From contig NZ_AXVL01000006.1 in NCBI RefSeq assembly GCF_000482505.1, positions 92,641-156,640 of the forward strand: a DNA stretch of 64,000 nt, given 5' to 3'. The stretch is from Leptotrichia trevisanii DSM 22070 (GTDB lineage: Bacteria; Fusobacteriota; Fusobacteriia; Fusobacteriales; Leptotrichiaceae). This document shows positions 3,193 to 22,749 of the stretch, one piece after another (positions within the stretch are counted from its first letter, which is position 1; every line of letters begins with the position of its first letter). The position numbers and the translations under genes are program-made. The notes under the pieces were generated by a model, which ran no database searches, was not told the origin of the DNA, and saw only the letters and a program-made list of their open reading frames with translations.

Positions 3193-5871
3193 TTATCCCT
3201 TTACAACAATATTAACCAGCTTATTAGGCACAACAATTACCTTAACAACTTCCTTCTCATCAGTAAATTTCTGAACTTTTTCCGAAGAAAATGCTAATTT
3301 TTCAGCATCATCTTTTGAAATTCCAATTTGTGCAGGAATCATATCCCTAACTTTTCCATTTACTTGTAAAACCAAGTTAAAGTTGTTTTCCACAGTTAAT
3401 TTTTCATCAAATGTTGGCCATTCTTCCTCAAAAGTAAGAGTTGTATTTCCTAAATCACTCCATAATTCATCCGCCACGTGCGGTGCAAAAGGTGCAATTA
3501 GTAAAATCACTTTTTCAAGAACTTCATGCCATACTTTTTTACTTTCTGATGAAATATCATTTTTATCAATTACATTTTGCTTGTAAGTTGTCATATCGTT
3601 TAGAAGTTCCATTATTGCGGCGATTGCTGTGTTAAAGTGGAAATCGTCCTCAATGCTGTCTGTAACTTTTTTTACAGTCTGATGTAATTTTTTCTGAATT
3701 TCCTTATCTTTTTCACTTCTCGCATCTAAATTAATTCCATAATTATCTTCCTTTGATGCATTTTTATCAGCAAAATCAGCTGTTGATGAAATTAACAGAT
3801 AAAGTCTGTTTATGAATCTGTAAGCCCCTGCAAGTCCATTCATATTCCATTCCAATTCTTTTTCAGGCGGTGCAGCAAATAATGTGAAGACTCTTGAAGA
3901 GTCAGCTCCATATTCCTTCACGATTTCTTCAGGATCTACTCCGTTGTTTTTAGATTTACTCATTTTTTCAACTTTTGTTGCCAATTCTTCTCCAGTTTCC
4001 TTAGAAACAGGTTTTCCATCCTTCATCTCTACTTCTCTTGGGAACAAGTATCTTCTTTCATTTTGAGAATAATAAGAAGGCCCTAAAACCATTCCTTGTG
4101 TCAATAAACGCTTAAATGGCTCATTTGTGTCAACATATCCTAAATCTCTTAATGATTTGTGGAAAAATCTTGCATAAAGCAAGTGCATTACTGCATGCTC
4201 AATTCCACCTATATATTGATGAACTGGTGTCCAGTTATCTGCATCTTCCTTTTTAAACGGCTCTTTATCATTGTGAGAATCCAAATATCTCAAGTAATAC
4301 CATGAAGAATCAACGAAAGTATCCATTGTGTCAGTTTCTCTTCTACCTTTTTTCCCATTTGGCAAAATTACATTTTTAAATTCCTCAGAAGTTTCAAGCG
4401 GATTTCCTTTTCCGCTAAACTCAATATCTGTAGGTAGTTTCACAGGCAAGTTTGCTTCCTCTTCCAAGTAAATATTTTCATCTTCATCATAAATCACAGG
4501 AATCGGAGTTCCCCAATATCTTTGTCTACTAATCAACCAGTCATGAAGTCTATAATTCACAGTTTTCTTACCAAGTCCAATTTTTTCCAATTTTTCAGTA
4601 ATTTTCTCTTTTGCTTCATTACTATTTAATCCATTAAATTCTTCTGAATTTACTAATACTCCAGAATTTGTCAACGCATTTTCCATTTTTTCAACAGAAA
4701 CTTCTTCCAAATTACCATTTTTATCAACAGGATTTACAACAATTTGCAAATCTAAATTATATTTTTTAGAAAACTGAAAATCTCTTTCATCATGTGCCGG
4801 CACTGCCATTACTGCTCCAGTCCCATAATCCATTAACACATAATTTGCAATCCATAACTGCACTTTTTCACCATTCACAGGATTAATCACATACAATCCA
4901 GAAAATACTCCTTCTTTTTCCTTATCTTCCGCTGTACGTGCAATTTTATCTTCATTTATCATTCTTTCAACAGCTTCTCTTATCGAAGGATTTTCTTTCA
5001 GAATAACTTCCTCAACCAACGGATGTTCTGGTGCAACAGTTGCATACGTAACCCCATAAAGCGTGTCAGGCCTTGTCGTAAACACAGAAATTACAACTTC
5101 TCCCTTGTCATTCAATTTTAAATGTGAATTTCCATCATTTTCAAATTTATAATCTAAAATAAAGTCAACTTCAGATCCTGTTGATTTTCCAATCCAGTTT
5201 TTCTGCATTGTCAATACTTGCTCTGGCCAATGTCCTCTAAGTTCTTCATGCCCTTGCAGTAATTCTTCTGCATATTCTGTAATTTTGAAATACCATTGTG
5301 AAAGTTCCTTTTGAATTACGTCAGTTTTACTGTGACGCCAACATTTTCCACCTTCAACCTGCTCATTCGCAAGCACTGTATTACAGTCAGGACACCAGTT
5401 TACATAAGATTTTTTCTTGTAAACAAGCCCTTTTTTATACATTTCAATAAAAAACTTCTGATTCCACTTATAGTATTCTGGAGTATAAGTGCTAAGTTCC
5501 CTGTTCCAGTCATAAGAAAGTCCCATAAGCTTCATCTGTCTTCTCATATTGTCAATATTCGCTTTAGTCCATTTCCCAGGATGAGCCCCATGATCAATCG
5601 CCGCATTTTCCGCAGGTAACCCAAAACTATCCCATCCAAACGGATGCAACACATTAAACCCTTTCATCTTCTTATATCTAGCAATCGCATCACCAATCGC
5701 ATAATTTCTCAAATGTCCAACATGTAATTTCCCTGACGGATACGCAAACATCTCAAGCACATAATAATTCTCTTTCCCCTCAATCTTATTTTCCGATTTA
5801 AAAACATCTTTTTGTGCCCATTTGTCTTGCCATTTTTTTTCAATTTCATTAGGATTATATTCCTTAATCAT
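3193..5871 (-). CDS. leuS: Leucyl-tRNA synthetase
   Basis: Charges tRNA-Leu with leucine in the cytoplasm. The 892-residue class I synthetase has the HIGH-type motif HVGH near residue 51 within FAYPSGKLHVGHLRNYAIGD, a zinc-type insertion (NWCPDCNTVLANEQ), the CP1 editing domain (TTRPDTLYGVTYATVAPEHP and the MAVPAHDERDF segment), and the KMSKS motif (KVEKMSKSKNNGVDP). Length and domain order are those of bacterial LeuRS. ATG 5869-5871 has GAAGGAG upstream. A predicted promoter at 6074-6102 would give an unusually long leader of about 195 bases. I looked for T-box hallmarks there and saw none. Confidence 0.98.
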   Translation of the reverse strand: MIKEYNPNEIEKKWQDKWAQKDVFKSENKIEGKENYYVLEMFAYPSGKLHVGHLRNYAIGDAIARYKKMKGFNVLHPFGWDSFGLPAENAAIDHGAHPGKWTKANIDNMRRQMKLMGLSYDWNRELSTYTPEYYKWNQKFFIEMYKKGLVYKKKSYVNWCPDCNTVLANEQVEGGKCWRHSKTDVIQKELSQWYFKITEYAEELLQGHEELRGHWPEQVLTMQKNWIGKSTGSEVDFILDYKFENDGNSHLKLNDKGEVVISVFTTRPDTLYGVTYATVAPEHPLVEEVILKENPSIREAVERMINEDKIARTAEDKEKEGVFSGLYVINPVNGEKVQLWIANYVLMDYGTGAVMAVPAHDERDFQFSKKYNLDLQIVVNPVDKNGNLEEVSVEKMENALTNSGVLVNSEEFNGLNSNEAKEKITEKLEKIGLGKKTVNYRLHDWLISRQRYWGTPIPVIYDEDENIYLEEEANLPVKLPTDIEFSGKGNPLETSEEFKNVILPNGKKGRRETDTMDTFVDSSWYYLRYLDSHNDKEPFKKEDADNWTPVHQYIGGIEHAVMHLLYARFFHKSLRDLGYVDTNEPFKRLLTQGMVLGPSYYSQNERRYLFPREVEMKDGKPVSKETGEELATKVEKMSKSKNNGVDPEEIVKEYGADSSRVFTLFAAPPEKELEWNMNGLAGAYRFINRLYLLISSTADFADKNASKEDNYGINLDARSEKDKEIQKKLHQTVKKVTDSIEDDFHFNTAIAAIMELLNDMTTYKQNVIDKNDISSESKKVWHEVLEKVILLIAPFAPHVADELWSDLGNTTLTFEEEWPTFDEKLTVENNFNLVLQVNGKVRDMIPAQIGISKDDAEKLAFSSEKVQKFTDEKEVVKVIVVPNKLVNIVVKG

Positions 5872-6073: not shown

Positions 6074-6102
6074 ATTGTACTATATTTTGAAATTTTTGAC
6101 AA
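6074..6102 (-). promoter_or_regulatory. Predicted promoter of leuS
   Basis: On the minus strand, TTGTCA (6097-6102) and TACAAT (6074-6079) are 17 bases apart, about 200 bases before the leuS start. It lies just past the end of the helicase gene; no clear terminator separates the two, so read-through into leuS is possible. Confidence 0.5.
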
Positions 6103-6147
6103 TTATTTTTCAATTATTTACTTTAAAATATTTTATACATTTACCTA

Positions 6148-8265
6148 TCATTTTCTAATTTCTAAAAAATTTTTAACACCTTGAACATCAAGTTTATTAT
6201 CTATAACATATTTAATTTTTAAATTATCTGGTACTAAAAGCATATATTTATTTGAACTTAAGTAAGCATCTACTAAACTTATTTTTTCTAACTTCCTTGA
6301 CTCTTTTATATCATTTTCAAAAAAATTCACAATTTGTGTTTCATTTATCCCACTTTTTATAATATTGTTTATAGCTTCTTCTATAACATTATCATTTGAT
6401 TGAATTGTATCATTTAATTCCCTAAAATCTTTTAAATCTAAAAAAATCAATAATAATATCATCAAAGTTCTGTCTATTTTAGTACTTCTAAATGTTTTTA
6501 TATCTTTTCTATTTTTATCTAAATAAAAATAAATTTTTTGTTTTAAAATAAGATTTTTTGAAATAATTTCCAAATTTTTTCTTATTTTTTCAGAATATTT
6601 TTCCCAATTTTTTTTATCGAATAAAATTTCCTTCATTTCTTTTCTTAATTCATCAGTAATTTCTCCCTCTTCTCCCAAAAATCTAGGTGCTTTCCCATCT
6701 GTTGCCTTTTTTACAAATATTTTCTTTACCTTTTCATCTACTTTTTTTATTTTCCAAATTCCTGCGGCCAAATATATATTATCATCTATATTTACTCTTA
6801 TACCTAGTGGAAGTTCCCCTACTTTATTTTGATTATTGTATACTGAATACATATCCTCTACTTTAAATTGAGTGTAAAACTCTGCTTTTTTTAACAATTT
6901 CTCAAGATTAATTCCTGCGATAACATTATTGTCCAATATTTCAATATATTTCTCTTTCAAAAGATAATTACATATATTTGAAAACTCTTCGTATTCAATA
7001 TTTTTCCAAGTTTGATATTTTTCTCTCAATTTTTTAAATTCTGATAAATTTATTTCACTCTTTTCAACTATTAAAGATAATATTTGATGAGCCATTACAT
7101 CATAAGGTTTTTTCACAACATCTATTTTATCAACTTTTCCTTTTTCATAAATTGAAATCGCTGCCAATCCTTGCAATAAATTCCATTTTTCATCTGAAAT
7201 AAAATGCAAATTATTTATTCCTATTCTTCTTCCACTCCTACCTAATCTTTGAGCTAATGATGACACCGAATAAGGAGCATTGTATTGAACTATGCTATCA
7301 ACAGCTCCTATATCTATACCCAATTCAAGTGTTGATGTACAACATATTGTAAATAAATTTTTATTAAATTCTTTAGCAAAATTTTCTACCATTGTCCTTA
7401 TGTTTTTGCTTACTGAAGCATGATGAGAAAAATAACTTATATTAATTTTTTCTTTTTGAGCTTTTTTCTTCAGATTTGCCGCTATCATTTCTACATTTTG
7501 TCTTGTGTTCGGAAAAACTAACATTGTTTCAGTTTTAGAATATTCATAAATCTTATTTAATGCTTCTGTTTCATCAGAATAAAAATTATAATCTATTTTT
7601 AGTTCATTTCTTCCTTTATCTCTAATTATTTTTGTTGTTCTTTCATTTTGAAAAATTTCTTTTAAGTCTGAATAATTTTCTTCTGATACTGTTGCAGACA
7701 TTCCAATAATCCTAGGATTATTATTTTCTATATACGAGTTCATTCTCTCCAGTAAAGATTTAAGCTGAATTCCTCGATTAGAACCAATAAAACTATGAAT
7801 CTCATCTACAATTATATTTTCAATACTGTAAAATAACTTTTTCACTCTATCTGATTTTGTTACAAATAATGCTTCCAAACTTTCAGGAGTTATTAATAGT
7901 ATTCCTTTTGGATTTTTTAAGATACTCCTTTTTTTACTTTGTGAAGCTTCTCCATGCCATCTAGTAACAGTTATTTCCATATATTTACATAATTCTGAAA
8001 TTCGATTAAACTGATCATTAATTAATGCAATTAATGGAGAGATATATACTATTTTTACACCTTCTTCCCAATTTTTAATACTGTTAATTGCAGGTAAAAA
8101 AGCCGCTTCTGTTTTTCCTGAGGCCGTAGGTGCAATTAAAATTAAATTGTCTTTACTTTCGTTATAAAGTTTTATAGAATGAGTTTGTATTTTAGTAAAT
8201 TGTTGCCAATTTTGATCATAAATGTATCTTCTGATTTCTTTTTTTAACATATTATAAATATCCAT
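6148..8265 (-). CDS. sngC: SF2 DEAD/DEAH-box helicase, Shango-like component SngC
   Basis: ATP-dependent nucleic-acid helicase of 705 residues with a complete superfamily-2 set: motif I APTASGKTE (about 45-53), motif II DEIH (154-157), motif III SAT (190-192) and motif VI QRLGRSGR (339-346). The C-terminal 350 residues have no motif I recognise. It resembles Lhr-type and BREX BrxHI helicases. Its ATG overlaps the stop codon of the upstream ATPase gene by one base (TAATG), so the two are translationally coupled. Together with that ATPase and the TerB protein it matches the three-gene Shango anti-phage system (TerB protein, ATPase, helicase). The helicase call is firm. The Shango role is inferred from family and gene order. 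The gene is rich in Lys/Asn/Ile and A/T-ending codons, more so than leuS. Confidence 0.85.
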   Translation of the reverse strand: MDIYNMLKKEIRRYIYDQNWQQFTKIQTHSIKLYNESKDNLILIAPTASGKTEAAFLPAINSIKNWEEGVKIVYISPLIALINDQFNRISELCKYMEITVTRWHGEASQSKKRSILKNPKGILLITPESLEALFVTKSDRVKKLFYSIENIIVDEIHSFIGSNRGIQLKSLLERMNSYIENNNPRIIGMSATVSEENYSDLKEIFQNERTTKIIRDKGRNELKIDYNFYSDETEALNKIYEYSKTETMLVFPNTRQNVEMIAANLKKKAQKEKINISYFSHHASVSKNIRTMVENFAKEFNKNLFTICCTSTLELGIDIGAVDSIVQYNAPYSVSSLAQRLGRSGRRIGINNLHFISDEKWNLLQGLAAISIYEKGKVDKIDVVKKPYDVMAHQILSLIVEKSEINLSEFKKLREKYQTWKNIEYEEFSNICNYLLKEKYIEILDNNVIAGINLEKLLKKAEFYTQFKVEDMYSVYNNQNKVGELPLGIRVNIDDNIYLAAGIWKIKKVDEKVKKIFVKKATDGKAPRFLGEEGEITDELRKEMKEILFDKKNWEKYSEKIRKNLEIISKNLILKQKIYFYLDKNRKDIKTFRSTKIDRTLMILLLIFLDLKDFRELNDTIQSNDNVIEEAINNIIKSGINETQIVNFFENDIKESRKLEKISLVDAYLSSNKYMLLVPDNLKIKYVIDNKLDVQGVKNFLEIRK

Positions 8266-9581
8266 TAAAATACCTCTATTTCATCATCAAGATTATTTTC
8301 ATCCTTTTCCACTTTATTCATTTTTCCTAATTTTGCTTCTATTATTGCTATTACTTTTTCATTTGGATTCTGTCTTATTAAATCTAAAATTTCGATATAA
8401 TCCTTTATTACTGCTCTTGGTGTTAAAAATTCATCTGCTCCTGGAAGATTTAATTTTCCTTCCATATATAATTTTATTTCGTTTGTATCTAGTTCTATAG
8501 AAGTTTTATAATTTACATTGTAAATATCTCTCAGTCTTTCTAAAAGAATAAATATCTCTTCATTGCTCAAAGGTTTTAATAATAATACAGATTTCTTCGT
8601 ATTAATTAAATTTGATAAATCATCATTTTCTGTTCCTAATCTCCCTTTTAATGCTTCATAACTTGACATTCCTCTAACTTTATCATATACTGTTTTTTTA
8701 GTTGCACCAAAATTTATAAACATTCCCCTCGCCTTATTAGATTTACATTCATTAAAAATATTCAATATCTTTTCATAATTTTTTTCTCTAGTTTGTGATT
8801 GAGGTATCTTGTATAAATTAACTAATTCATCAAAATTAACTACAAAACCCGAGTATCCCATATCTAAAATTAATTCTCCAAATGTTTTCAAGGCCTCATA
8901 CCAGTTATCATCATTGATTATCTTCCCAATTCCTAATTCTCTTTTTGCTTCGGTTTTCGTTTCAATATTTCCTCGAAGCCATCTTAAAGCTTTTTCCTTT
9001 TTCTCATAGTCATCTTTTAATATTCCTCTATAATATTGAATAATTGCTTGTCCAAACTCATAAGATATTGATGATGTTGTAAACGAAGAAGTTAAATTTA
9101 GTATTTCTTTTTCAATAAATTGTGGATTTTCATTCAGTTCTTCTATTCTCAAATTTTTATTATTTACAATTTGATTCTTAACTTTTTCTATCCAAGTTTC
9201 TATTATTGTATTTATAGCTCTTCCATTTTGAGCAGTCTGAACTACTATATTATCTATTATTTCACTGTAAAGAGCCTTTGATTTCCCGTCTGTTGAATAA
9301 AATCTTCTTGTAGGATTCAAGTCAACTGTAGAAACAGCAAAATTCTTTTGTAAAGCAATAGATTCTATTGTTCTTAACATAAAACTCTTTCCTGAACCAA
9401 AATCTCCCACCCAAAATTTTATTTCACTGTCTCCTTCGCTTATTTTATCCAATATTTTTACTATTTCTTGAACTTCATTATTTCTTCCAACTAATAAATG
9501 CTGTATTCCTCTTCTAGGAGTTATCCCTCCTTCTATTGCCTTAATTACACTATCTGCTTCTTTCAAATTTATTTTAACCAT
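8265..9581 (-). CDS. sngB: P-loop ATPase of the BrxD/DUF2791 type, Shango-like component SngB
   Basis: ATP-binding protein of 438 residues. The Walker A motif GDFGSGKS lies at about 59-66 after an ORC/AAA-like opening (GGITPRRGIQHLLVGRNNEV), and a Walker B motif (VVNFDELVNL, Asp251-Glu252) follows. This is the BrxD/DUF2791 type of ATPase that accompanies SF2 helicases in BREX type 2 and TerB-linked DNA-processing loci. The start overlaps the end of the TerB gene by 8 bases and the stop overlaps the helicase start by one base, which indicates a tightly coupled operon and probably a stoichiometric complex. No pglX, pglZ or brxC is present, so it is not a BREX locus. The ATPase assignment is firm; the defence role is inferred from context. 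Confidence 0.83.
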   Translation of the reverse strand: MVKINLKEADSVIKAIEGGITPRRGIQHLLVGRNNEVQEIVKILDKISEGDSEIKFWVGDFGSGKSFMLRTIESIALQKNFAVSTVDLNPTRRFYSTDGKSKALYSEIIDNIVVQTAQNGRAINTIIETWIEKVKNQIVNNKNLRIEELNENPQFIEKEILNLTSSFTTSSISYEFGQAIIQYYRGILKDDYEKKEKALRWLRGNIETKTEAKRELGIGKIINDDNWYEALKTFGELILDMGYSGFVVNFDELVNLYKIPQSQTREKNYEKILNIFNECKSNKARGMFINFGATKKTVYDKVRGMSSYEALKGRLGTENDDLSNLINTKKSVLLLKPLSNEEIFILLERLRDIYNVNYKTSIELDTNEIKLYMEGKLNLPGADEFLTPRAVIKDYIEILDLIRQNPNEKVIAIIEAKLGKMNKVEKDENNLDDEIEVF

Positions 9582-11472
9582 TTTCTTTCAGCCACTCCTT
9601 CATATCATCAATATAAAATTCATCTATTTTCACCTTATTATTTTCAAAAATTACTACCTGATCATTAACAACATCATACACTTCTTTATTTATAAAATCT
9701 ATATAAGCATTTAATGACATATTTTTTTCTTTAGCATAATTTTTTAAATCACTTTCTTCCATTTTTTGAGTTTCTATTATTATTTTCAATATTTCTTTTA
9801 TTTTATTATCTTGAAAATTTTCTATTTTTTCTTCTTCTTTATTCTCAACAACTATATCTTTTTGTTCTTCATTATAAATTTTACCAATATCATCTTCTTC
9901 ATTTTCTTCTTTTAAATATTCTTCTAAAATATTAACTGTTTCAGCAAATTTCTCTTTTGTCACTTTTACTTTTTCTAAATTCAAATCTATTTTTTTCATT
10001 TTCTGAAACTTTAATAATTTTAATTCCTCGTATATTTTTTGAGTTATTTCATTATCTTTGTCTAATAGTTTTTTATAATCTTGAAATCTATCAGCAGATA
10101 TTATTTTTTCTAACATTTTTACTTCAGTTTTTTTCAATTCTCTATTTCTATTCAATAGAAATAAATAAAATAATTTATAGTCACTATTTTTTTCTTTTTT
10201 CAGTAATTCTTTTATTATTTTTTCCAAATTCTCATCATTATTAAATCTTATTATTAAATTTATTTTTTTCTCATTGAATAATTCTATGTATCCTAATTTT
10301 AATTTCCAATCTTTAGGATAGTTTTTTATCTCATAAGTTATAATTGATTCAATTTTTTCTTTGGATAACTTAAAATTTTCAATATTTTCTAATAATTCAT
10401 TTAACATTGATTTAGGAAAAAATTTTTTTATACTTTCTAATTCTTTTTCTGTTTCAAGTATTTTGTAATTTGGTATAAAGCTTCTAATCTTGTTTTCAAC
10501 TATTTTTAAAATTGCGTATAATCCTTCTATTTCATTATATTCAAAATAACCATAATCTTGTAAATTTAAAATAGCATTTATAATTTTTTTACTTTTCTTT
10601 TTTAGTTTTTCTTCAGTTTTTACTCTTTCTTCTATAATTTTCCATTCATCCAAATATAAAAGAATCATTTGCTTCTTAGCTTCATAATTATTCCAAATTT
10701 TAGTTTGCCTAAAACTAGTCCTTTCCAATATTCTTTTTTCTAACTCTGACAAATTATATTCTTCTCTAAATTTTCCATCTTTATCCCAATATCTATAAGG
10801 CAAACCATTTGGTGTTAAATTGTAATATTCAATAATTTCATTATTTAATCTAGGCAATTTTTCTAAATATTTATTTATTTCATCTATTACAACTTTACTT
10901 GTATCTTCTTCTAAAATATCCCAAAAATCTTTAAAATAATAATTATTTATATCTATTTCATTTCCTCTATATTTACTATTTATTATTCGTATTGCTCCAT
11001 AAAAAATATTCTTAAAAGTTTCTCCTCTAAAAATATAATTTTTTCCTTCAAATTTTGCAATTTCTTTGACTAATATCTTATTTTTATTTTCCAATTCAAC
11101 ATTTGAAATTTCACATATTTTATTATAAAGATCTAAAATTTTTTCTCTTAAAAAAGGAACTTTTAATTCACTAAAACGATAGTATTCCATCCTACCTAAT
11201 TTAGATTTCCAATTATTAACAATCTTTATATTTTCATTTCTAAATTCAGTATAGTCTATCTTTTCTTTTTTAAAGTTCGTAACATCTATTATATTATCTT
11301 CTTTACTATAAAAACTATCTTTTTTCTTATTCTCACTATTATTTATCAATTTTTTTTCAAAAATCTCATTTTTCAAAGTATAATTTTTATTCTTTAAAGA
11401 TTTTTCTTCATTATTCTTAAACTTTATAATTTTAGTCATTTCTTTTATTAAATCTAAAATATAATTTTTCAT
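9574..11472 (-). CDS. sngA: TerB-N/TerB-C domain protein, Shango-like component SngA
   Basis: A 632-residue Lys/Glu/Asn/Ile-rich protein. The middle (about 90-290) resembles the TerB-N region, ending in LTPNGLPYRYWDKDGKF and the LYLDEWKIIEERVK helix. The last 70 residues (MEESDLKNYAKEKNMSLNAY, then DVVNDQVVIFENNKVKI) fit the TerB-C domain, which is normally followed by a short beta tail. The stretch between is low in conserved motifs. TerB-N/TerB-C proteins are known from tellurite-resistance-related stress loci and as the first gene of Shango. Its ATG overlaps the stop of an 18-codon upstream ORF (ATGA) and has only a weak ribosome binding site of its own, suggesting translational coupling. 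The TerB assignment rests on pattern recognition without alignment. Confidence 0.7.
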   Translation of the reverse strand: MKNYILDLIKEMTKIIKFKNNEEKSLKNKNYTLKNEIFEKKLINNSENKKKDSFYSKEDNIIDVTNFKKEKIDYTEFRNENIKIVNNWKSKLGRMEYYRFSELKVPFLREKILDLYNKICEISNVELENKNKILVKEIAKFEGKNYIFRGETFKNIFYGAIRIINSKYRGNEIDINNYYFKDFWDILEEDTSKVVIDEINKYLEKLPRLNNEIIEYYNLTPNGLPYRYWDKDGKFREEYNLSELEKRILERTSFRQTKIWNNYEAKKQMILLYLDEWKIIEERVKTEEKLKKKSKKIINAILNLQDYGYFEYNEIEGLYAILKIVENKIRSFIPNYKILETEKELESIKKFFPKSMLNELLENIENFKLSKEKIESIITYEIKNYPKDWKLKLGYIELFNEKKINLIIRFNNDENLEKIIKELLKKEKNSDYKLFYLFLLNRNRELKKTEVKMLEKIISADRFQDYKKLLDKDNEITQKIYEELKLLKFQKMKKIDLNLEKVKVTKEKFAETVNILEEYLKEENEEDDIGKIYNEEQKDIVVENKEEEKIENFQDNKIKEILKIIIETQKMEESDLKNYAKEKNMSLNAYIDFINKEVYDVVNDQVVIFENNKVKIDEFYIDDMKEWLKENG

Positions 11473-11525
11473 ATTTTTTTACTCTTCAAAATTCCTTTTC
11501 CTAAATTTTTAAATTTTATTATCAT
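11469..11525 (-). CDS. Short leader ORF coupled to the TerB gene
   Basis: An 18-codon ORF (MIIKFKNLGKGILKSKKI) starts at ATG 11523-11525 behind an excellent ribosome binding site, AAGGAGG. Its TGA overlaps the ATG of the TerB gene. The TerB start has only GAAGAG nearby, so translating ribosomes probably reach it by re-initiation. The peptide is small and basic with no recognisable function; the ORF may matter only for translation. No homologue search was possible. Confidence 0.5.
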   Translation of the reverse strand: MIIKFKNLGKGILKSKKI

Positions 11526-11568
11526 AGTTTTTCCTCCTTTCTTACATCCCGTTTATCACTCGTTCAAA

Positions 11569-12453
11569 TTATTTCTTCAACTTCACAACTTTTTTCGATT
11601 TTGCCCCAGTTTTTTCCCCTAATTTACTGTAAGCCCAGAAAACATACATGCTCGTTCCAAACAAATATTCATTATCTGATAACGAGAACATAAGTTCATC
11701 GGTTGTAAAACGTCTGTATCTCATATCACTTATTTGGTTAAGATAAATGTCACCTCTATCATTCATTATATCTTTAAAGAATTTTTTTATTCCTTTCACA
11801 TTTTTTTCAATTTTTTTCAAATAATTCGCCGCTTTAGCGGATTCTCCTTTTTTAAAATAAAGAACTGAAAGTGGAAGCAATATTTGTACTTCATCATGCC
11901 CACCGTATTTTTTATAAAGTTTTAAAGCATTTTCTTCATCTTCAAAAAAAGCATAAAGTGACATTAGTCTAAATCGTACTCCCATATTATCGTTTTCATT
12001 TAACTTTAAAATCTCTTCATATTCTTTAATGGCTTTTTTCATCATTCCATTTTCCACTAAAGTATTTGCGTAGCTACACTTTATTCTCATATATGGACGA
12101 GTTTCAAAAATTCCCCAGAAATGTCCAATATTTTCTTCATCAAAGTATTTTTCTCTTTCCATTATTTCATTCCCGTGCTTCATTACTTTTTCCAATTTCT
12201 TTAACATTTCAAGTGAATCTGCTGAAGTTGCACTAGCTATTAAATATTCAGCATCCAAATTATCTTTATCCAATTTTAATACTTTTTTTGCATATTTTAC
12301 TCTTTCGCTATCAGTATCCGCCTCAAATGCCAAATCTAAATAGTCGTACACAATTTCTTTTTCATTTTCACTAAATTCTTCTTTTCTCAGAAAGTTTTCA
12401 TCATATTGTTCTTGAAATTCATTTATTAATTGTTCTATTTCTTTTTCAGTCAT
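11569..12453 (-). CDS. Tetratricopeptide-repeat protein of unknown function
   Basis: A 294-residue acidic cytoplasmic protein without signal peptide. It contains TPR-like helical pairs: KYAKKVLKLDKDNLDAEYLI (about 58-77), MMKKAIKEYEEILKLNENDN (about 136-155), and FEDEENALKLYKKYGG. The segment GHFWGIFETRPYMRIKCSYA is well formed and looks family-specific. Such proteins usually act as protein-binding scaffolds; the partner is unknown. The gene lies 43 bases upstream of the Shango leader ORF on the same strand and may be co-transcribed with it, but it is not a known Shango part. A 25-codon ORF overlaps its start. The ribosome binding site AAGGAA is inside that small ORF. Confidence 0.75.
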   Translation of the reverse strand: MTEKEIEQLINEFQEQYDENFLRKEEFSENEKEIVYDYLDLAFEADTDSERVKYAKKVLKLDKDNLDAEYLIASATSADSLEMLKKLEKVMKHGNEIMEREKYFDEENIGHFWGIFETRPYMRIKCSYANTLVENGMMKKAIKEYEEILKLNENDNMGVRFRLMSLYAFFEDEENALKLYKKYGGHDEVQILLPLSVLYFKKGESAKAANYLKKIEKNVKGIKKFFKDIMNDRGDIYLNQISDMRYRRFTTDELMFSLSDNEYLFGTSMYVFWAYSKLGEKTGAKSKKVVKLKK

Positions 12454-12523
12454 TCCTTCCTTGTAAGCGTTTTTTCATAAATTTTTCAAATTCTTTGTGC
12501 ATCTTTTCCATTTTTCCAAGCAT
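12446..12523 (-). CDS. Possible 25-residue ORF overlapping the TPR gene
   Basis: ATG 12521-12523 is preceded by AAAGGA at 12536-12541. The ORF runs 25 codons to TGA 12446-12448, overlapping the start of the TPR gene by 8 bases. The peptide is charged (MLGKMEKMHKEFEKFMKK at its start) and could form an amphipathic helix. It may be a real small protein or a coupling leader like the one before the TerB gene. No homologues could be checked. Confidence 0.35.
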   Translation of the reverse strand: MLGKMEKMHKEFEKFMKKRLQGRND

Positions 12524-12567
12524 AATTTACTATTTTCCTTTCAACAAATAATTTTATTTCTATTTAA

Positions 12568-13269
12568 TCAATACCCAAAATTCGGATTTTCAATCATCCA
12601 TTTTCCATTCTTCTTGTTAGCCTCTAAAATTTCTTTTCTTCCCACATATTTCCCGTTTTTCGTCATTTTAGCCATTTCTTCATCCATAATTTCCATTTGA
12701 ATTTCGCCCATTATTTTAAAATATTTTTTCATTGCTTTTTCATCTTTTTCTGAAATTGACTTTGTATATTCTTCCATTGTTTTTCCTGTTCTTTTCTTAA
12801 AGGCCGCCTCAAGTTTTTTAGAACTCTCCTCGGCTTTTTCTAGCATTTTATCAATACTGCCCATGCTTTTTATTTCATCCATATTAATAGGAATTCCCAA
12901 TTTAACTTTTACATACGCTTTATTTTCAGAAATATAATTTATCTTTTCTATTTCAATTTTATAATATTTAAACATCATATCCATCATTTTAGAAATATAG
13001 TCTTCTCCAAAAAAACCATTCATTAATTCTTTTAAGTCATTTCCCTCATTTTTCCCTTGAACAGAAGCTCCGTTCATCATTTTATTCATAATTCCAAACA
13101 TTTCTTCTTTTGAATATATTTTACTAACTTCCTTTTCAATTTGAGAATTATAGCTCTGAACAACATTTTGAGATATTTTTGCAGATGGCTCTATTTCCAC
13201 TTGATATTTTTCCTGCGTAAAAGTTGATAAACTTAGCAATACAAATAAACCTAAAATTATTTTTTTCAT
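12568..13269 (-). CDS. Secreted or periplasmic protein of unknown function
   Basis: A 233-residue protein with an N-terminal signal peptide (MKKIILGLFVLLSLSTFTQ), then a charged, mostly helical body with many Lys, Glu and Met residues (GIMNKMMNG, MMDMMFKYYKIEIEKI). There is no lipobox cysteine, so it is probably released to the periplasm. I chose ATG 13267-13269, since the upstream in-frame GTG at 13276-13278 overlaps the ribosome binding site region. The fold resembles small bacterial proteins with a beta-rich domain before a long helix, but I recognise no family. It follows cbiE by about 75 bases on the same strand. Confidence 0.7.
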   Translation of the reverse strand: MKKIILGLFVLLSLSTFTQEKYQVEIEPSAKISQNVVQSYNSQIEKEVSKIYSKEEMFGIMNKMMNGASVQGKNEGNDLKELMNGFFGEDYISKMMDMMFKYYKIEIEKINYISENKAYVKVKLGIPINMDEIKSMGSIDKMLEKAEESSKKLEAAFKKRTGKTMEEYTKSISEKDEKAMKKYFKIMGEIQMEIMDEEMAKMTKNGKYVGRKEILEANKKNGKWMIENPNFGY

Positions 13270-13344
13270 ATTATTCACTTCTTTCTTTTTTCATAAATTT
13301 GACTTTATTATTGAAAAAATTTATTTTTTTATTTTTTTCACTCA

Positions 13345-13983
13345 CTATTTCTTCTCGTCCCAATAAATCACAACTACATTCATCTCAAATTTCTCCTCAA
13401 TCTTTACCATTTCTTTTGCTGAAAGTTCTAAAATCTTCTCATTTTCATAAGACAGATTTTCACCAACAAAAATAATAGCCTCTCCCATTCCATTTTCAAT
13501 CAGTATTTCCGCTATCCTCTGCGGCGTATTTTTGTTATCTGTTAAAAGTCCGATTTTTCCAAATTCACGCAATTTTTGAACATACTCAACTTCTCGGCCG
13601 TGAACACTTGATACAAAAGCATCATTCCAATATTCAGAAATTCTGGCAAACATATACTGGATCGAAGAAATTCCAGGTATTACATTAAGTTCTTCTGCTT
13701 CAAAATGTTTTCTCATAAATGTGAGCATGCTGTAAAAGCCCGTGTCGCCAGACAGTATCAATGATATTTTTTTATTTCGATTTTCTTCAATAAAATCCAG
13801 AACTCTTTGCAAGTCAGCCTTTATATAGCAATATTCCTTATTTTCAGCATATTTTCCAAGACTTTCGATGTGTCGTTTTCCGCCAATTATTATATCCGAT
13901 TTTGCAATTTCTTTTAGTACAACTGGCAAAGTATAGTCCAAATTTCCCGGCCCCAAACCAAGTACATTTATTTTATTTTTCAT
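13345..13983 (-). CDS. cbiE: Cobalt-precorrin-7 (C5)-methyltransferase, CbiE type, orphan
   Basis: SAM-dependent tetrapyrrole methylase of 212 residues. CbiE methylates cobalt-precorrin at C5 in anaerobic cobalamin synthesis. Visible family motifs are the N-terminal GLGPGNLDYTLPV (9-21), the SGDTGFYSML loop, and VIPGISSIQYMFARI; the C-terminal part ends as in stand-alone CbiE, with no CbiT (decarboxylase) fusion. ATG 13981-13983 has AGGAGAAAA upstream. No other cob/cbi gene lies nearby, which is odd for a pathway normally encoded in one cluster, and no cobalamin riboswitch is visible. The rest of the pathway may lie elsewhere, or the enzyme may act on scavenged intermediates. A -10 box TATAAT lies at 14022-14027, with a weak -35. 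Confidence 0.85.
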   Translation of the reverse strand: MKNKINVLGLGPGNLDYTLPVVLKEIAKSDIIIGGKRHIESLGKYAENKEYCYIKADLQRVLDFIEENRNKKISLILSGDTGFYSMLTFMRKHFEAEELNVIPGISSIQYMFARISEYWNDAFVSSVHGREVEYVQKLREFGKIGLLTDNKNTPQRIAEILIENGMGEAIIFVGENLSYENEKILELSAKEMVKIEEKFEMNVVVIYWDEKK

Positions 13984-14171
13984 TTTTCTCCTAAATAAAT
14001 TTTACATTATTTTATGTGTCTATTATACCCTAAATACGTGAAAAATTAAAGAAAAAATAATTTTAAAAACCTATTTTTATACTTACTTTAATCCTCTCAA
14101 AATCAAATTGAAATATCAAAATAAATCTAAAATTTGAATAATTCTATCACGTTCAACTTTAAAACGGCAAC

Positions 14172-14200
14172 AAAAAAAGACTGATTTTTACAGCCTTTTT
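14172..14200. terminator. Predicted terminator after the SemiSWEET gene
   Basis: AAAAAGACTG (14174-14183) and CAGCCTTTTT (14191-14200) form a 10-bp stem with one mismatch around a seven-base loop, with a T-run on the minus strand (A-run on plus). It lies 55 bases past the SemiSWEET stop. Confidence 0.65.
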
Positions 14201-14254
14201 AAAATTAACTTAAAATTTAAACAATATCTTATTCGTAATTTTTTTATTATTTAT

Positions 14255-14518
14255 CTAAATAGCGGTAATGAAAGTCAAAAATCCTAATATTACTCCTGCC
14301 GCATTTGGCACAATTAAAATATAATCTTTTTTAGGTTCTTTAGTCCATCCGTAAATTACCCATATTAAACAGGAAACTGAGGCAGTAAGTGGTTGCCATG
14401 GCTGTGCTTTTTCTCCACCTATATTAGCAATAATTTGAGGAATATATGTTATAAATACAAATATACCTATAAATGCTCCTATTGAGCCAACGATTGTGTT
14501 AATTTTCTTTTTGTTCAC
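14255..14518 (-). CDS. SemiSWEET sugar transporter
   Basis: An 87-residue inner-membrane protein with three hydrophobic segments (about 10-28, 42-58, 66-86), the size of a SemiSWEET half-transporter, which works as a homodimer to move sugars down their gradient. The PQ-loop motif is present as TYIPQII (about 24-30), followed by AQPWQPLTASVSCLIW, typical for the family. The gene starts with GTG (14516-14518), set by AAGGAGG five bases upstream. It diverges from glpK, and the two promoters lie back to back, so they may share control. The transported sugar is unknown. Confidence 0.88.
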   Translation of the reverse strand: MNKKKINTIVGSIGAFIGIFVFITYIPQIIANIGGEKAQPWQPLTASVSCLIWVIYGWTKEPKKDYILIVPNAAGVILGFLTFITAI

Positions 14519-16392: not shown

Positions 16393-19300
16393 TTAGTAAA
16401 TAGCCCTAAATCCTATTCCACCCCTCACATTCTTACCTTTAGTATCATAACCACCATTTACCGTTACTCCAAATTTTATGTTATCCACTCCAATGTTCAA
16501 ATCAAATTTACCATTTCCTTTTCTGTCATCCTTTTCACCTCTGATTCTAAACCAGTCTGCTGTCGTATATCTCACTCTTGCCCTGTTGTTTACATCTCCA
16601 ACTTTTCCCAACTCATTTTCATAGACAACTGTAAGTCCTACTGTCAAGTTTGTTCTTACTGCAAGTGGTTGCACATATTTGAATTCCATTCCAACTTCAG
16701 GCTTAACTGAAAAGTAGTCGTTTCCTTTTACCTCTAATCTTATCTGTCCTGAATCTTCTTTTATGTCATTAAATCTGCCATATTCCATCTTCAAGGCTCC
16801 ATAAGGACGGAAATGCGTTCTCTCACTTAATCTTACATCGTATCCTAAATCTGTTTTTAATGCAGCACCATAAGAATGATAGTCAGATTTTGCTTCAAAA
16901 ATATCATCTACAACCAGGAATTTACGTTTCATATCATTAATTCCCACAAATACATCTCCACCGATTGTCCATTGCAATGCTCCATTATGATCAGCTTTTG
17001 GTGACATTGTTTTGAATATTCCAGCTTTAAGTATTGTTTGGTTTTCTTTCGATTTTCCGATGTCTTTAAATTTAAATCTGTTTGTTACAGTACCTGCATA
17101 CCATCCACTTGAGTTACCCATCTTGATTTTTTCATCCTCATGAACATAGGCTACACCATAAGCATTGCTTGTATAGTCAATGATTCCTGCTGTATTAGTA
17201 TTATATTCATCTTTCATACCAAACACTTTGATTTTATTGTTTTGTTTAGATGGATTTCTCCAGTCGTGTTTTAGATATTTAAACTCTTTGTCCAGTAAAC
17301 TTCCTGTTGCGTTGATTCTTTGCTGCACATTGGCATATTGTTTTCCTTTCATTTCATCAAAGGCCTGTGCTAATAAAATTGATTCATTCTTTCCTATACC
17401 ATTTAATTTTTGGAATACTTGGTTTTCTCTGCTTCCTAATGCTTCGACTCCGTATCTTTGTTCCAGTCCATCTGTGAAAGGATAGCTATATGAGTCTGAT
17501 TTCTTTATAAAATTTGTATAAGGAATTTTTGCCATAATTGCATTTTCCATTCCATCTAAATTCATTTTTGCTGTCGCTGTCCAAGTTAAAGAGGCAGAAT
17601 ATATTTGCCATTTCTTCCCTGTTGCTTGCGACATTGCATCATTATATGGTTTTAAAATCTTTTCTCCTATTTGAATTACTTTTGCATTTGTATACTCTGC
17701 TGCTTCTATTCCAAAAATTAAATCCACTTTTATTTTAGGACTTAATAAATTCAAATTTTGAATAGGATTAGTATAATTTACTCCCGAAGTATCTACATAC
17801 ATTCCGATAGAATCTATTTTTCCATTATTTTTTCTATTTGTTGTAAATTTATCTTCTATACTTTTTTCTCCAGGATTTACTGAAAGATAATCTGGATTTG
17901 TTGCTGAATTAGTATCAACTTTTGTTGGTGATACAACTTTTCCATTTATTTCTACTTTCGTTGGATTTTTCTTAGTTTCAATTTTTACAGTAGGATTTCC
18001 TGTTTCATCAACTACTGTCTTTTTTGTTTCGTTACTTGCTGTTCTGCTGTAATGCTTAGTTCCTGCTTTAACTGTTCCTGTTTGTCCTCCTGAAGTTGCA
18101 TTATCTTCAGTAATTGAATCTTTTCCGCTATAAGTTCCGATACTTCCTGCTGCTGGCAATAATTTTATTTGACCATAGTTTTTAAATCTGGCTCCATTCA
18201 TGGCAACTGCTCCCACTGCCCCTATTGCATCAACCGTTGCTTCGATAGTACCATAATTTTCTCCTGTGGCATGCTGATCTAAATACATTCCAATGGAGCG
18301 TGCACCTATCAATTTAATATGTCCCCTATTTACAGCTTTAGAACCATAACCTGTGGCATACATTCCTATTCCATGTTCTCCATGCACTTCAATATTACCT
18401 GTGTTTTCTATGTTTCCTATATTTACAAGAGTTTTAGTGTCAGTGTTATAGTATCCTCCTGCCATACCGATGGAGTAATTTTCTCTCGGCTGTGAAGCAC
18501 CTACATAAATATTACCGGCATTTTTTACAACCCTGTCTTTATTTGTACTGTATAGCCCCACATTTCCTTTTCCATTTCTAAAATCAATACTTCCATAGTT
18601 AGTTGCAGTCCCTGATGAATAAATTCCATAGTTTTGATCCCCATTACTTCTTAATGCAGTATAGTTTATTATGCTTCCAGAATTATCTTCCGAATACATA
18701 AACATATTTCTATTATTTAAAGTTACCTGATTCACTGTGGAAGTAATTGTTTTATTTTTCCCGATATTTACAAGTCCAAAAGAATCATCACCAAGAGTAA
18801 CATTAGAAAATTTATATGCTACATTTTGTGCAGAGTTTCCTACTAAATATACTCCCTTAGCTTCTTTAGCTCCAATTTTTAAATCTCCATCCAAGTCTAA
18901 ATTACCTTTACTTGAATAAACTCCTATTCCCGAATCTCCGACAGTAATTTTAGAAGTATTTGTAGTGGTAATTTGATACCCATACAATCCTACTGTATTT
19001 TTCCCACCTGTAACATTTCCACTATTTTGAATAAGTGTTTTTTCATTTTTAGAAAATATTCCTATATTTGCATTTATTAAAGAAGAAGCATTTCCTAAAA
19101 CAATTCTTCCTTTATTTTCAGTTAAATAATTTCCATTTCCTTCTGCAAACATCCCTATTGAATGTTCTCCTGATAACTGAATAAGTCCTGCTGATTCATT
19201 TATATATTTCTTATTATTTGTTGCTGCCACATTATCACTGTTAAAATACATTCCTATTGTATTTTTAGAAGAAGATAAAATATTTTTTAAATTATATACT

Positions 19301-22300
19301 CCTCCAATAGTATTTGCATTAGAACCTGTAAAGACATTTCCATCCTTATCTTTATCACTGTAATAAATCCCAATAGAACCTTTACCCAATGAAATATCCC
19401 CAAGATTGCTTGCCTTTCCTCCTGTTGTTGTAGCTTCATTATCTTCTAACAGATACATAGCAGCTGATTTTTTCCCAACTGATATTTTTCCTGTGCTATC
19501 ATTTAAAAGTATTCCTCTTTTTCCATATATTCCAGTTGATTTATCCCCTGTCAATTGGATATTTCCTTTATTAGTCAAAGAAACTTTATCAGCATTTTTT
19601 GTACTTCCATTTTCCTGTGCTATTGCAACCTGTTCCAATTTCGTTCCTGCTATTGTTTTTTCATTTACAATAGAAGATTGGGTAATTTGCATTTTATTAT
19701 ATGAATCTGTATTTGAATCTAAATCAACATCTCTATCAACTTTTAAATTACTTTCAATTAAAGAATATGGAATATAGTTTAAAGAACCTGTAATTTCCAA
19801 TTTCCCAGCTAAACTGCTTAACGCCCCTGAACCAAAATCCATACTTGGAAGAGACGTTAAATTAACTTTTCCATTAGCAAGAAGTAACACTCTTCCTCCT
19901 TCTCTCATATTTAAAGTTAATTTCTTACCGGCACTATGATTAAAGTTTGCATTATACCAGCTTACAAAATCAAAGTTTCCACTATCTGGCAATTTATAGT
20001 AAAAAGCTGTTCCATCTTTTTCTATTTCTGCTCTAAGGTTTCCTTGAATATTAAATTTTCCATCAGCTACTCCATTTTCATAACCTGTCAAAAATGTAAG
20101 AGCATTCTTTTTTGTAAATAAGACATTATTATCTCCAAAATTAATTATTCCTGACTTATTGGCAACAGCATTGATAGCTCCATCTTCTGCTATAACTTTA
20201 GCATTAGATATTGTAATTTCAGGACTTATATTATCCTTTGCCTGACTTGAAAACAAGCCTACAGATTTTTTATCTTTAACACGGATATATGTCACTCCAT
20301 CTGATATAATCTTTCCTCCATATTTAGCATTCATTCCATAAGAACCTCTTTCAAGATATTTGCTAAAAAACTTCACTTTAGTTGAATCATTAGGATCATC
20401 TCCATAATATTCAGCATATCCTTTATAATGTCCTCCATAGAATAAAAAATCTCCATGATTTGTTAAAGTTGCCTTATTATTTGACAAAAATCCTCTCATT
20501 CCTTTTCCAGCTTCTGTCAAATCTTCTGGTTTCATATCATTTATGGATTTTGTGCTTATATTTCCAGTCATTACTAATTTTCCTCTATTAGTCAAATTAG
20601 AATCCGCCCTTTTGCTATTTTGAATTGTTATCCCTATAACATTATCTGAATTAAAAACACCCATTTCCATCTTTTCATGAATTTTAACATTAGTGGAATC
20701 ATGTGCAGTAATCAAACGACTTTTCCAACCTTTTTCATTTTTCATCAATAGGTTATGATACTGTCCATTTCCACCTAGGTTAAAATTGTCTACTCTTTCT
20801 AATCTAATCAATGTATTATTTTTAGCATTCTCTGAAATAATATCAACACTATCAATATTAAAATTTTTATGGCTATCTAAGCTATAATTAGTCCTTGCTT
20901 GTGCAAAATATAAGGCTGTATTCTCCTCACCCGACATATGAATACGGAAAATAGATTTTTTTACATTATTCGGATTATATCCTGCTTCTCCCCTAGGAGC
21001 CATAATTTCATAAGAACCTTTATTTACAATAGTTCCTTCAGTATAAAAATTCTTTCCTATATTATAGAATGTCATTCCATAGCCATCTTTTCCTAAAAGT
21101 TTTATAGGTTTATTAAACTCATAAATTTCTGTTCCTTGACTATTGCTTGTGAAGAAACCAAATTGTCTATATCCTCTTAATTCAAAAATTCCATTTTGAA
21201 TAAAATGATATCCACTTTTAGTATTTCCACCTGCAATCTTACGCACAAGTCCAACATTCCCACCATCCCCTACAAATTCTCCTCTTTTAATTTTTAAATA
21301 ATCTTCTTCTGTTGTCGGTAAATGTCCACCTCCAATAATTTTACCTGTTGTAGCATTTTCAACAATAGGATGAAGATTTTCTGGAGGGTTATCTGGATAT
21401 AAAAAATCTATTGCACTACCTTTTTTCCCTGTTACTTCTATCGTTCCTTTATTAACTAAATTCCCATATCTTCCTTTGAATGTATTAAAAAGAATTGTAC
21501 TCCCATTAGTTTTTTGAAATATTTTAGTATTTTCTCCTATGGTTAAAGTTGTTATTTTATTAGGTGCAGAAGCTCCAGTAGAAAAATAATCACCTTCTAT
21601 TGAAATAGCACTTCTCAAAAGTGCAGAATTTTTTCCTCCCACTGTAATTGTAGTATTATTAATACTAAAATCATTATGTCCCATAACATAGTTAATAATT
21701 GAAGCATAATTTTTATATTTAAACTTTTGGGAATTATGAGTATGATTTGAGTAAGTAAAATTTGTTGTTCCTCTAGTTTTTCCTACAAAATTTACTCCCT
21801 GAGTATTATACTGCATTGTACTGTTTTCTTCATCAATTTCTTTGTTACCACCTACAGTCTTAATTTTCCCGTCAAAAGTAATATCTATCTTACCATTGGA
21901 AATATCTGTATTTTGTATTGGAGCAATAGTTTCATCCTTTGCTTGTGGTCCTGTTACTACTCTAGGGGTTAAATTTTTACTATTAAGAACACCTGCTCCA
22001 AAATTAGGAATTTCATCTCCACTACTAGGAGTAGTTTTTCCTGTTATTACTTTTTCATCTGGAACTTCAAAATCTGGAAGTTCTGGTACTGAAAAATTCA
22101 AATTATGATTTATTCCTATTGTTAATGGTTCCATTTTCTTTGGCTGTCTTGGCTTTACTCCCGCTGACACTTCCACTTCTACTATTGGTTCCTCTACCAT
22201 TCGTAAATCAGTTGTTCCAAAGTGTAAAACATTTTTTCCATTTAGGTTGGAGCTTGCTTGTGTAGAATCATTTCCTGTAGCTAGACTTGAATAATGTGTA

Positions 22301-22749
22301 CTTGATGTGTGAATGCTTCTTTGAAAAATATTATTACTTCTAGTGAATATACCTCTGTAATATTCCTTGTCTCCACGTCCTTTAAAAGTCCTATTCCAAT
22401 TGTTACTAAAATAATTTACACCATATTGCCAGTTACTCCACGGAGATTTTACCACATGCTCCCCTTGTTCCATAAGCTGAATGAGTTCCAGATTTGTATT
22501 TTTCAATAACTTGTCATTTTCCATTTTTGTTTTTTTCAAATTTTTATGAATATCCTTAATTGATATTGAAATTGTTTGTCTTTGAATTTTTAGATCTGAA
22601 TCTTCTGTTTCTGAAAATGAATTATTTGTAGAAAGGAATGTGCCTGTTATTAGAAACGTAATTAGTGCAGAATCAGTATATTTAAAATTTTTACATCTTT
22701 TTGCAAAGGAACACAGATCCTTTTGCAATTTTCTAAGATTATTTGTCAT
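16393..22749 (-). CDS. Large fusobacterial autotransporter (2118 residues)
   Basis: Type V secreted outer-membrane protein. The N-terminus has a basic stretch (LRKLQKDLCSFAKRCKNFKY) before a hydrophobic secretion segment (about 27-45), the autotransporter-associated N-terminal type found in Leptotrichia, then a helical region ending in LIQLMEQGEHVVKSPWSNWQ. Residues of about 190-290 are Pro/Lys/Thr-rich. The passenger (about 300-1750) is built of short beta-helix repeats of the form (S/T)xGxY...NxGxI. The last 300 residues or so form the beta-barrel, ending in GGIGFRAIY with the terminal aromatic residue needed for outer-membrane insertion. The barrel and N-terminus closely match the second autotransporter in this window; the passengers differ. 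Likely an adhesin, but the ligand is unknown. Confidence 0.9.
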   Translation of the reverse strand: MTNNLRKLQKDLCSFAKRCKNFKYTDSALITFLITGTFLSTNNSFSETEDSDLKIQRQTISISIKDIHKNLKKTKMENDKLLKNTNLELIQLMEQGEHVVKSPWSNWQYGVNYFSNNWNRTFKGRGDKEYYRGIFTRSNNIFQRSIHTSSTHYSSLATGNDSTQASSNLNGKNVLHFGTTDLRMVEEPIVEVEVSAGVKPRQPKKMEPLTIGINHNLNFSVPELPDFEVPDEKVITGKTTPSSGDEIPNFGAGVLNSKNLTPRVVTGPQAKDETIAPIQNTDISNGKIDITFDGKIKTVGGNKEIDEENSTMQYNTQGVNFVGKTRGTTNFTYSNHTHNSQKFKYKNYASIINYVMGHNDFSINNTTITVGGKNSALLRSAISIEGDYFSTGASAPNKITTLTIGENTKIFQKTNGSTILFNTFKGRYGNLVNKGTIEVTGKKGSAIDFLYPDNPPENLHPIVENATTGKIIGGGHLPTTEEDYLKIKRGEFVGDGGNVGLVRKIAGGNTKSGYHFIQNGIFELRGYRQFGFFTSNSQGTEIYEFNKPIKLLGKDGYGMTFYNIGKNFYTEGTIVNKGSYEIMAPRGEAGYNPNNVKKSIFRIHMSGEENTALYFAQARTNYSLDSHKNFNIDSVDIISENAKNNTLIRLERVDNFNLGGNGQYHNLLMKNEKGWKSRLITAHDSTNVKIHEKMEMGVFNSDNVIGITIQNSKRADSNLTNRGKLVMTGNISTKSINDMKPEDLTEAGKGMRGFLSNNKATLTNHGDFLFYGGHYKGYAEYYGDDPNDSTKVKFFSKYLERGSYGMNAKYGGKIISDGVTYIRVKDKKSVGLFSSQAKDNISPEITISNAKVIAEDGAINAVANKSGIINFGDNNVLFTKKNALTFLTGYENGVADGKFNIQGNLRAEIEKDGTAFYYKLPDSGNFDFVSWYNANFNHSAGKKLTLNMREGGRVLLLANGKVNLTSLPSMDFGSGALSSLAGKLEITGSLNYIPYSLIESNLKVDRDVDLDSNTDSYNKMQITQSSIVNEKTIAGTKLEQVAIAQENGSTKNADKVSLTNKGNIQLTGDKSTGIYGKRGILLNDSTGKISVGKKSAAMYLLEDNEATTTGGKASNLGDISLGKGSIGIYYSDKDKDGNVFTGSNANTIGGVYNLKNILSSSKNTIGMYFNSDNVAATNNKKYINESAGLIQLSGEHSIGMFAEGNGNYLTENKGRIVLGNASSLINANIGIFSKNEKTLIQNSGNVTGGKNTVGLYGYQITTTNTSKITVGDSGIGVYSSKGNLDLDGDLKIGAKEAKGVYLVGNSAQNVAYKFSNVTLGDDSFGLVNIGKNKTITSTVNQVTLNNRNMFMYSEDNSGSIINYTALRSNGDQNYGIYSSGTATNYGSIDFRNGKGNVGLYSTNKDRVVKNAGNIYVGASQPRENYSIGMAGGYYNTDTKTLVNIGNIENTGNIEVHGEHGIGMYATGYGSKAVNRGHIKLIGARSIGMYLDQHATGENYGTIEATVDAIGAVGAVAMNGARFKNYGQIKLLPAAGSIGTYSGKDSITEDNATSGGQTGTVKAGTKHYSRTASNETKKTVVDETGNPTVKIETKKNPTKVEINGKVVSPTKVDTNSATNPDYLSVNPGEKSIEDKFTTNRKNNGKIDSIGMYVDTSGVNYTNPIQNLNLLSPKIKVDLIFGIEAAEYTNAKVIQIGEKILKPYNDAMSQATGKKWQIYSASLTWTATAKMNLDGMENAIMAKIPYTNFIKKSDSYSYPFTDGLEQRYGVEALGSRENQVFQKLNGIGKNESILLAQAFDEMKGKQYANVQQRINATGSLLDKEFKYLKHDWRNPSKQNNKIKVFGMKDEYNTNTAGIIDYTSNAYGVAYVHEDEKIKMGNSSGWYAGTVTNRFKFKDIGKSKENQTILKAGIFKTMSPKADHNGALQWTIGGDVFVGINDMKRKFLVVDDIFEAKSDYHSYGAALKTDLGYDVRLSERTHFRPYGALKMEYGRFNDIKEDSGQIRLEVKGNDYFSVKPEVGMEFKYVQPLAVRTNLTVGLTVVYENELGKVGDVNNRARVRYTTADWFRIRGEKDDRKGNGKFDLNIGVDNIKFGVTVNGGYDTKGKNVRGGIGFRAIY

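What the first reader, a model, noticed from the sequence alone, without database searches (positions are those of the whole stretch)
6148..11525. Shango-like TerB / ATPase / helicase anti-phage cassette
Three minus-strand genes encode, in order, a TerB-N/TerB-C protein, a BrxD-type P-loop ATPase and an SF2 helicase with intact motifs. The gene ends overlap by 8 bases and by 1 base, and a leader ORF precedes them. This is the gene order of the Shango defence system. The genes look richer in A/T, Lys and Asn than the flanking leuS. Seen: motifs and overlaps. Known: Shango uses TerB, ATPase and helicase. Inferred: anti-phage activity here.
Basis: partly seen in the sequence, partly recalled or inferred. 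Interest (0 to 1): 0.6.

Follow-up and report, generated by a model that had tools for sequence, protein, structure and literature searches.

The report
Shango defence cassette at leuS hotspot
Three bacterial genes here form a known type of anti-virus defence system (Shango), parked just upstream of an essential gene at a spot where related species carry a different defence cassette or nothing, and a tiny "leader" gene in front of it appears to be a leftover of that other cassette.

Summary
Window 6148-11472 (-) encodes a TerB-C protein, a BrxD-type ATPase and an Lhr/BrxHI-like SF2 helicase, overlapping by 8 and 1 bases. PADLOC's Shango profiles hit all three: SngB 474 bits, SngC 600 bits, and SngA only weakly (48 bits, part of the protein). 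TerB-C passes Pfam's cut-off, but no TerB-N was found. This is a Shango locus with a diverged, fast-evolving SngA.

The locus is patchy. It occurs in 4 of 13 species of the genus, always directly upstream of leuS; all four copies except the window's have a broken gene. Three other species hold a PD-T4-4-like OLD-type ATPase plus small-protein pair at the same place; six have no cassette there, and two of those give a near-exact empty site.

The 18-aa "leader ORF" is very probably a scar. Its first 26 nt equal the start of that ATPase gene. With up to 2 mismatches the string occurs 4 times in 13 genomes, always at this site, and the other Shango copies lack it.

So: an ordinary member of a known system at a defence hotspot that I found no report of, with a visible trace of cassette replacement. 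Anti-phage activity and mechanism here are inferred, not shown.

The parts
9574..11472 (-). sngA: TerB-C protein, 632 aa, diverged, no detectable TerB-N
   Evidence: PADLOC SngA 48.1 bits over residues 227-628; Pfam TerB_C 33.6 bits; no TerB_N; dN/dS about 0.35
8265..9581 (-). sngB: BrxD-like AAA+ ATPase, 438 aa
   Evidence: PADLOC SngB 474 bits against BrxD 156 bits; Pfam BrxC_BrxD 406 bits; dN/dS 0.08-0.10
6148..8265 (-). sngC: SF2 helicase of the SngC/BrxHI group, 705 aa
   Evidence: PADLOC SngC 600 bits against BrxHI 383 bits; Pfam DEAD, Helicase_C, weak WH_Lhr; motifs; dN/dS 0.11-0.19
11469..11525 (-). 18-codon leader ORF MIIKFKNLGKGILKSKKI; probable 5' scar of a PD-T4-4_A-like ATPase gene, overlapping sngA as ATGA (translational coupling inferred)
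   Evidence: first 26 nt identical to the ATPase start in G011 and G012 and 1 mismatch in G005; no other hit in 13 genomes at up to 2 mismatches; absent from the Shango loci of G008, G013, G015
6111..11551 (.). extent of the foreign segment; G014/G016 are homologous up to 6110 and from 11552 on, with about 94 bp between in G016
   Evidence: empty-site comparison
6074..6102 (-). probable leuS promoter TTGTCA-17-TACAAT, conserved in the occupied copies and in empty sites; left edge of the cassette site
   Evidence: alignment, consensus scan
3193..5871 (-). leuS, core gene anchoring the hotspot in 13 of 13 species
11569..12453 (-). TPR-repeat protein gene flanking the site; intact in G014/G016, only a C-terminal remnant in G008/G013

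Best explanation
A complete Shango (SngABC) anti-phage operon occupies a defence hotspot between the leuS promoter and the genes upstream of it. Shown: gene content, order and motifs; patchy occurrence at one fixed site; another predicted defence pair at that same site in other species; purifying selection on sngB and sngC. Inferred: the BrxD-like ATPase SngB, of the ORC/Cdc6 AAA+ class, loads or activates the Lhr/BrxHI-like translocase SngC on invading DNA. The TerB-C protein SngA, the most variable part, senses the invader or couples the pair to it, and phage replication is blocked. Cassettes at the site are swapped by homologous recombination through the flanking core genes. One swap left the first nine codons of a PD-T4-4-like ATPase gene in front of sngA, where they now form a short leader ORF that may be coupled to sngA.
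For: Shango profiles hit all three genes. Same gene order in Hymenobacter, Paenibacillus and Roseovarius plasmid loci and in Erysipelothrix. Present in 4 of 13 species of the genus and absent from the rest, always next to leuS. Empty site in G014/G016. PD-T4-4_A-like pair at the same site in G005, G012 and, broken, G011. Unique 26-nt scar. Mosaic flank identities: leuS 3' part 95% to G008 but 79% to G013, while 12500-14499 is 98-100% to G013. dN/dS 0.08-0.19 for sngB and sngC among close relatives. Shango protects P. aeruginosa from phages (PMC10250203). The helicase-loading idea for the BrxD/BrxHI pair is proposed in PMC12839542; SngC and BrxHI share a defence helicase clade in PMC12278908.
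Against: SngA matches its profile weakly and only from residue 227 on, and lacks TerB-N. No phenotype data exist for this copy, and no mechanism is established for any Shango in the papers found. The other three copies in the genus have broken genes, so selection to keep the system may be weak. The SngA structure model was too poor to help (mean pLDDT 43).
Confidence: 0.85

Rival explanations
1. The three genes are a remnant or satellite of a type 2 BREX (Pgl) system, of which only the brxD-brxHI pair is left.
For: Both proteins also match BrxD and BrxHI models, and BrxD-BrxHI is a linked dyad in type 2 BREX (PMC12839542).
Against: SngB and SngC profiles score far higher than BrxD and BrxHI (474 vs 156, 600 vs 383 bits); BrxD stays below NCBIfam's cut-off (155 vs 350). 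The partner is a TerB-C protein, and the flanks are leuS, cbiE and glpK with no PglX, PglZ or PglW.
Confidence: 0.04
2. A housekeeping DNA-repair helicase operon (Lhr-like) with an ATPase and a helper, not a defence system.
For: The helicase's best solved relatives are ATP-dependent DNA helicases of bacteria that I take to be Lhr-type.
Against: Absent from 9 of 13 species of the genus and from 93 of 98 genomes of the phylum; sits at a site shared with another defence-like cassette; broken in three relatives.
Confidence: 0.06
3. The leader ORF is a functional regulatory leader peptide of the Shango operon, not a scar.
For: Good ribosome site (GGAGG) and ATGA overlap with sngA.
Against: Absent from the three other Shango copies of the genus; its start is a unique match to the start of the ATPase gene found at the same site. 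Scar and present-day coupling do not exclude each other.
Confidence: 0.1

Closest known systems
Shango (SngABC) of Pseudomonas aeruginosa PA14 and E. coli (PMC10250203)
   Same: Three genes TerB-like protein, BrxD-like ATPase, SF2 helicase, in that order; chromosomal defence hotspot beside core genes; PADLOC profiles match all three
   Different: SngA is diverged, shows no TerB-N and matches only from residue 227; site is leuS; no phenotype shown here
BrxD-BrxHI dyad of type 2 BREX (PMC12839542)
   Same: Homologous ATPase and helicase as adjacent genes
   Different: No PglW, PglX, PglZ or BrxC beside it; a TerB-C protein instead; scores clearly favour SngB and SngC
PD-T4-4 / WonAB-type OLD-ABC ATPase plus nuclease pairs (PMC12137116)
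   Same: The pair that replaces Shango at the same site in G005, G011 and G012 matches PD-T4-4_A; its 5' end survives as the leader ORF in the window
   Different: Not present as a working system in the window; the 226-aa partner matches no PADLOC or Pfam family, though it carries a visible IELKSK (ExK) motif

Membership tests
Shango | SngB: BrxD-like ATPase matching the SngB profile | tested here: met
   474 bits, residues 3-433
Shango | SngC: SF2 helicase matching the SngC profile, intact motifs | tested here: met
   600 bits over 3-701; motifs
Shango | SngA: TerB-like protein matching the SngA profile | tested here: met
   48 bits, E 3e-13, residues 227-628 only; TerB_C above cut-off
Shango | TerB_N domain in SngA (common in the family, not universal, so not a defining feature) | tested here: not met
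   no hit at E up to 10; also not detected in Hymenobacter and Erysipelothrix SngA
Shango | Gene order SngA-SngB-SngC as one operon | tested here: met
   overlaps of 8 and 1 bases; same order in plasmid loci
Shango | Protection against phages | not testable with these tools
   no experiment
Type 2 BREX | PglX, PglZ and PglW beside BrxD and BrxHI | tested here: not met
   flanks are leuS, TPR protein, cbiE, glpK
Type 2 BREX | BrxD above NCBIfam equivalog cut-off | tested here: not met
   155 vs 350 bits

The most novel reading that the evidence does not exclude
The site upstream of leuS is a genus-wide defence hotspot where whole cassettes (Shango, PD-T4-4-like pair) replace one another by recombination in flanking core genes without an integrase, and a replaced cassette can leave a start-codon fragment that becomes a translationally coupled leader of its successor.
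Probability: 0.6. Interest if true: 0.45.

Novelty: new member of a known kind. Interest (0 to 1): 0.35.

Why it matters
It extends Shango to a Fusobacteriota genus (phylum inferred) with a SngA lacking a recognisable TerB-N, which narrows what the sensor part needs. It also marks a small, simple defence hotspot where occupied, swapped and empty states can be compared base by base, so the way defence cassettes are exchanged without a visible mobile element can be studied directly.

Tried and rejected
TerB-N in SngA: not found by Pfam at E up to 10, nor by profile comparison with four other SngA proteins, where only 43 C-terminal columns align, at low probability. SngA structure prediction from a 3-sequence alignment failed (mean pLDDT 43), so no fold search was run. 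SngB and SngA relatives in viral contigs: none; SngB in phage records: none; SngA in plasmids by tblastn: none, although SngB relatives are there. Rfam: no hit in the window. BREX membership: considered and rejected. A literature search for a leuS defence hotspot found nothing, and one for Shango with Leptotrichia found only a detection-method paper that I did not read; the library holds open-licence papers only. Gene breaks in relatives as sequencing errors: the G013 sngB break is a 5-base deletion and looks real; the G015 sngA breaks are mostly single A's in homopolymers, and leuS itself is broken in G010, so some may be assembly errors.

Full report
What is there. Three intact minus-strand genes at 11472-9574, 9581-8265 and 8265-6148 overlap by 8 and 1 bases. 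PADLOC's Shango profiles are the best hits of all three: SngA 48 bits (residues 227-628 only), SngB 474 bits, SngC 600 bits; the BREX relatives BrxD and BrxHI score much lower. Pfam finds TerB_C in SngA (above cut-off), BrxC_BrxD in SngB, and DEAD plus Helicase_C with a weak Lhr winged helix in SngC. ATPase and helicase motifs are intact. The segment has 20-26% GC against 33-35% in leuS.

Correction on TerB-N. No TerB-N is detectable in this SngA even at E = 10, while the same Pfam model hits SngA proteins of Paenibacillus and Roseovarius plasmids strongly; Hymenobacter and Erysipelothrix SngA also lack a detectable one. Only the C-terminal part of the window's SngA aligns to those proteins by profile comparison. 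SngA evolves faster (dN/dS about 0.35) than SngB (0.08-0.10) and SngC (0.11-0.19) among the close relatives.

Distribution. SngA, SngB and SngC are found in 4 of 13 species of the genus, and SngB and SngC (49-64% identity) in one genome of another genus of the family. In the whole phylum set SngB is in 5 of 98 genomes. Outside, the nearest found are an Erysipelothrix metagenome assembly (61% SngB) and plasmids of Hymenobacter, Persicobacter and Paenibacillus (under 45%). No phage record or viral contig was found to hold it.

A hotspot at leuS. In all four species the cassette sits directly upstream of leuS. Its left edge is a conserved promoter-like sequence TTGTCA-17-TACAAT (6102-6074) that is also kept in empty sites. 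G014 and G016 are homologous to the window up to 6110 and again from 11552, with about 94 bp between in G016: an empty site. G006, G007, G009 and G010 also have no cassette there. In G005 and G012, and broken in G011, the same place holds a two-gene unit: an AAA_15/AAA_21 ATPase whose best PADLOC hit is PD-T4-4_A (229 bits) and a 221-226-aa protein without family hits. PD-T4-4 and WonAB are ATPase/nuclease defence pairs (PMC12137116). Within the genus neither unit was found elsewhere at the thresholds used. So 7 of 13 species carry a defence-like cassette at this spot, never both. Identity along the flanks is a mosaic, as expected if exchange runs through the core genes; no tRNA is in the window, and none of the neighbouring genes I scanned is an integrase.

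The leader ORF. The ORF 11525-11469 (MIIKFKNLGKGILKSKKI) begins with 26 nt identical to the first 26 nt of the ATPase gene in G011 and G012 (1 mismatch in G005). With up to 2 mismatches this string occurs only 4 times in the 13 genomes, each time at this site; the reversed control string never occurs. The three other Shango loci lack it. The simplest reading is a scar of a replaced ATPase cassette. It keeps a ribosome site and ends in ATGA on the sngA start, so it may now couple translation to sngA; that is an inference.

State of the copies. Only the window's copy is intact. G008 has a 1-base deletion in sngC, G013 a 5-base deletion in sngB and an in-frame stop early in sngA, G015 several frame breaks in sngA. 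Some single-base breaks may be assembly errors.

How it likely works. Shango protects P. aeruginosa from many phages (PMC10250203). I found no paper that gives a mechanism. BrxD is an ORC/Cdc6-type AAA+ ATPase proposed to load the BrxHI helicase (PMC12839542), and SngC groups with BrxHI, DruE and DpdJ in a defence helicase clade (PMC12278908). By analogy SngB loads or activates SngC on invading DNA, and the variable SngA supplies recognition or control. This is inference, perhaps 50% for the loading step.

Verdict. An ordinary member of a known defence system with a reduced-looking SngA, at a hotspot I found no report of, with a clear trace of cassette replacement.

Noticed in passing
L033 9822-11912 (G005); L035 2792-4852 (G012); L036 (G011, broken): PD-T4-4_A-like ATPase plus 221-226-aa partner without family hits, replacing Shango upstream of leuS; the partner shows an IELKSK (ExK) motif that could fit a PD-(D/E)xK nuclease.
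   Followed up: partly
G008 and G013, between the 236-aa gene and sngA (L014 6024-6215; L015 9140-9304): Only the C-terminal remnant of the TPR gene (window 11569-12453) is left, so the right edge of the site is also eroded.
   Followed up: partly
window 30157-41481: A 3774-aa ORF without any Pfam hit, with a 69-base tandem repeat at 37171-37300; a 2118-aa autotransporter lies at 16393-22749.
   Followed up: no
window 26522-29896: 1124-aa protein with DUF4132, next to the giant ORF.
   Followed up: no
window 47890-49488: 532-aa protein with a partial PADLOC PDC-M43B hit (54 bits, residues 380-477).
   Followed up: no
L029 (G010): leuS of a single-contig relative has a frame break, a warning that single-base breaks in these assemblies may be errors.
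   Followed up: no
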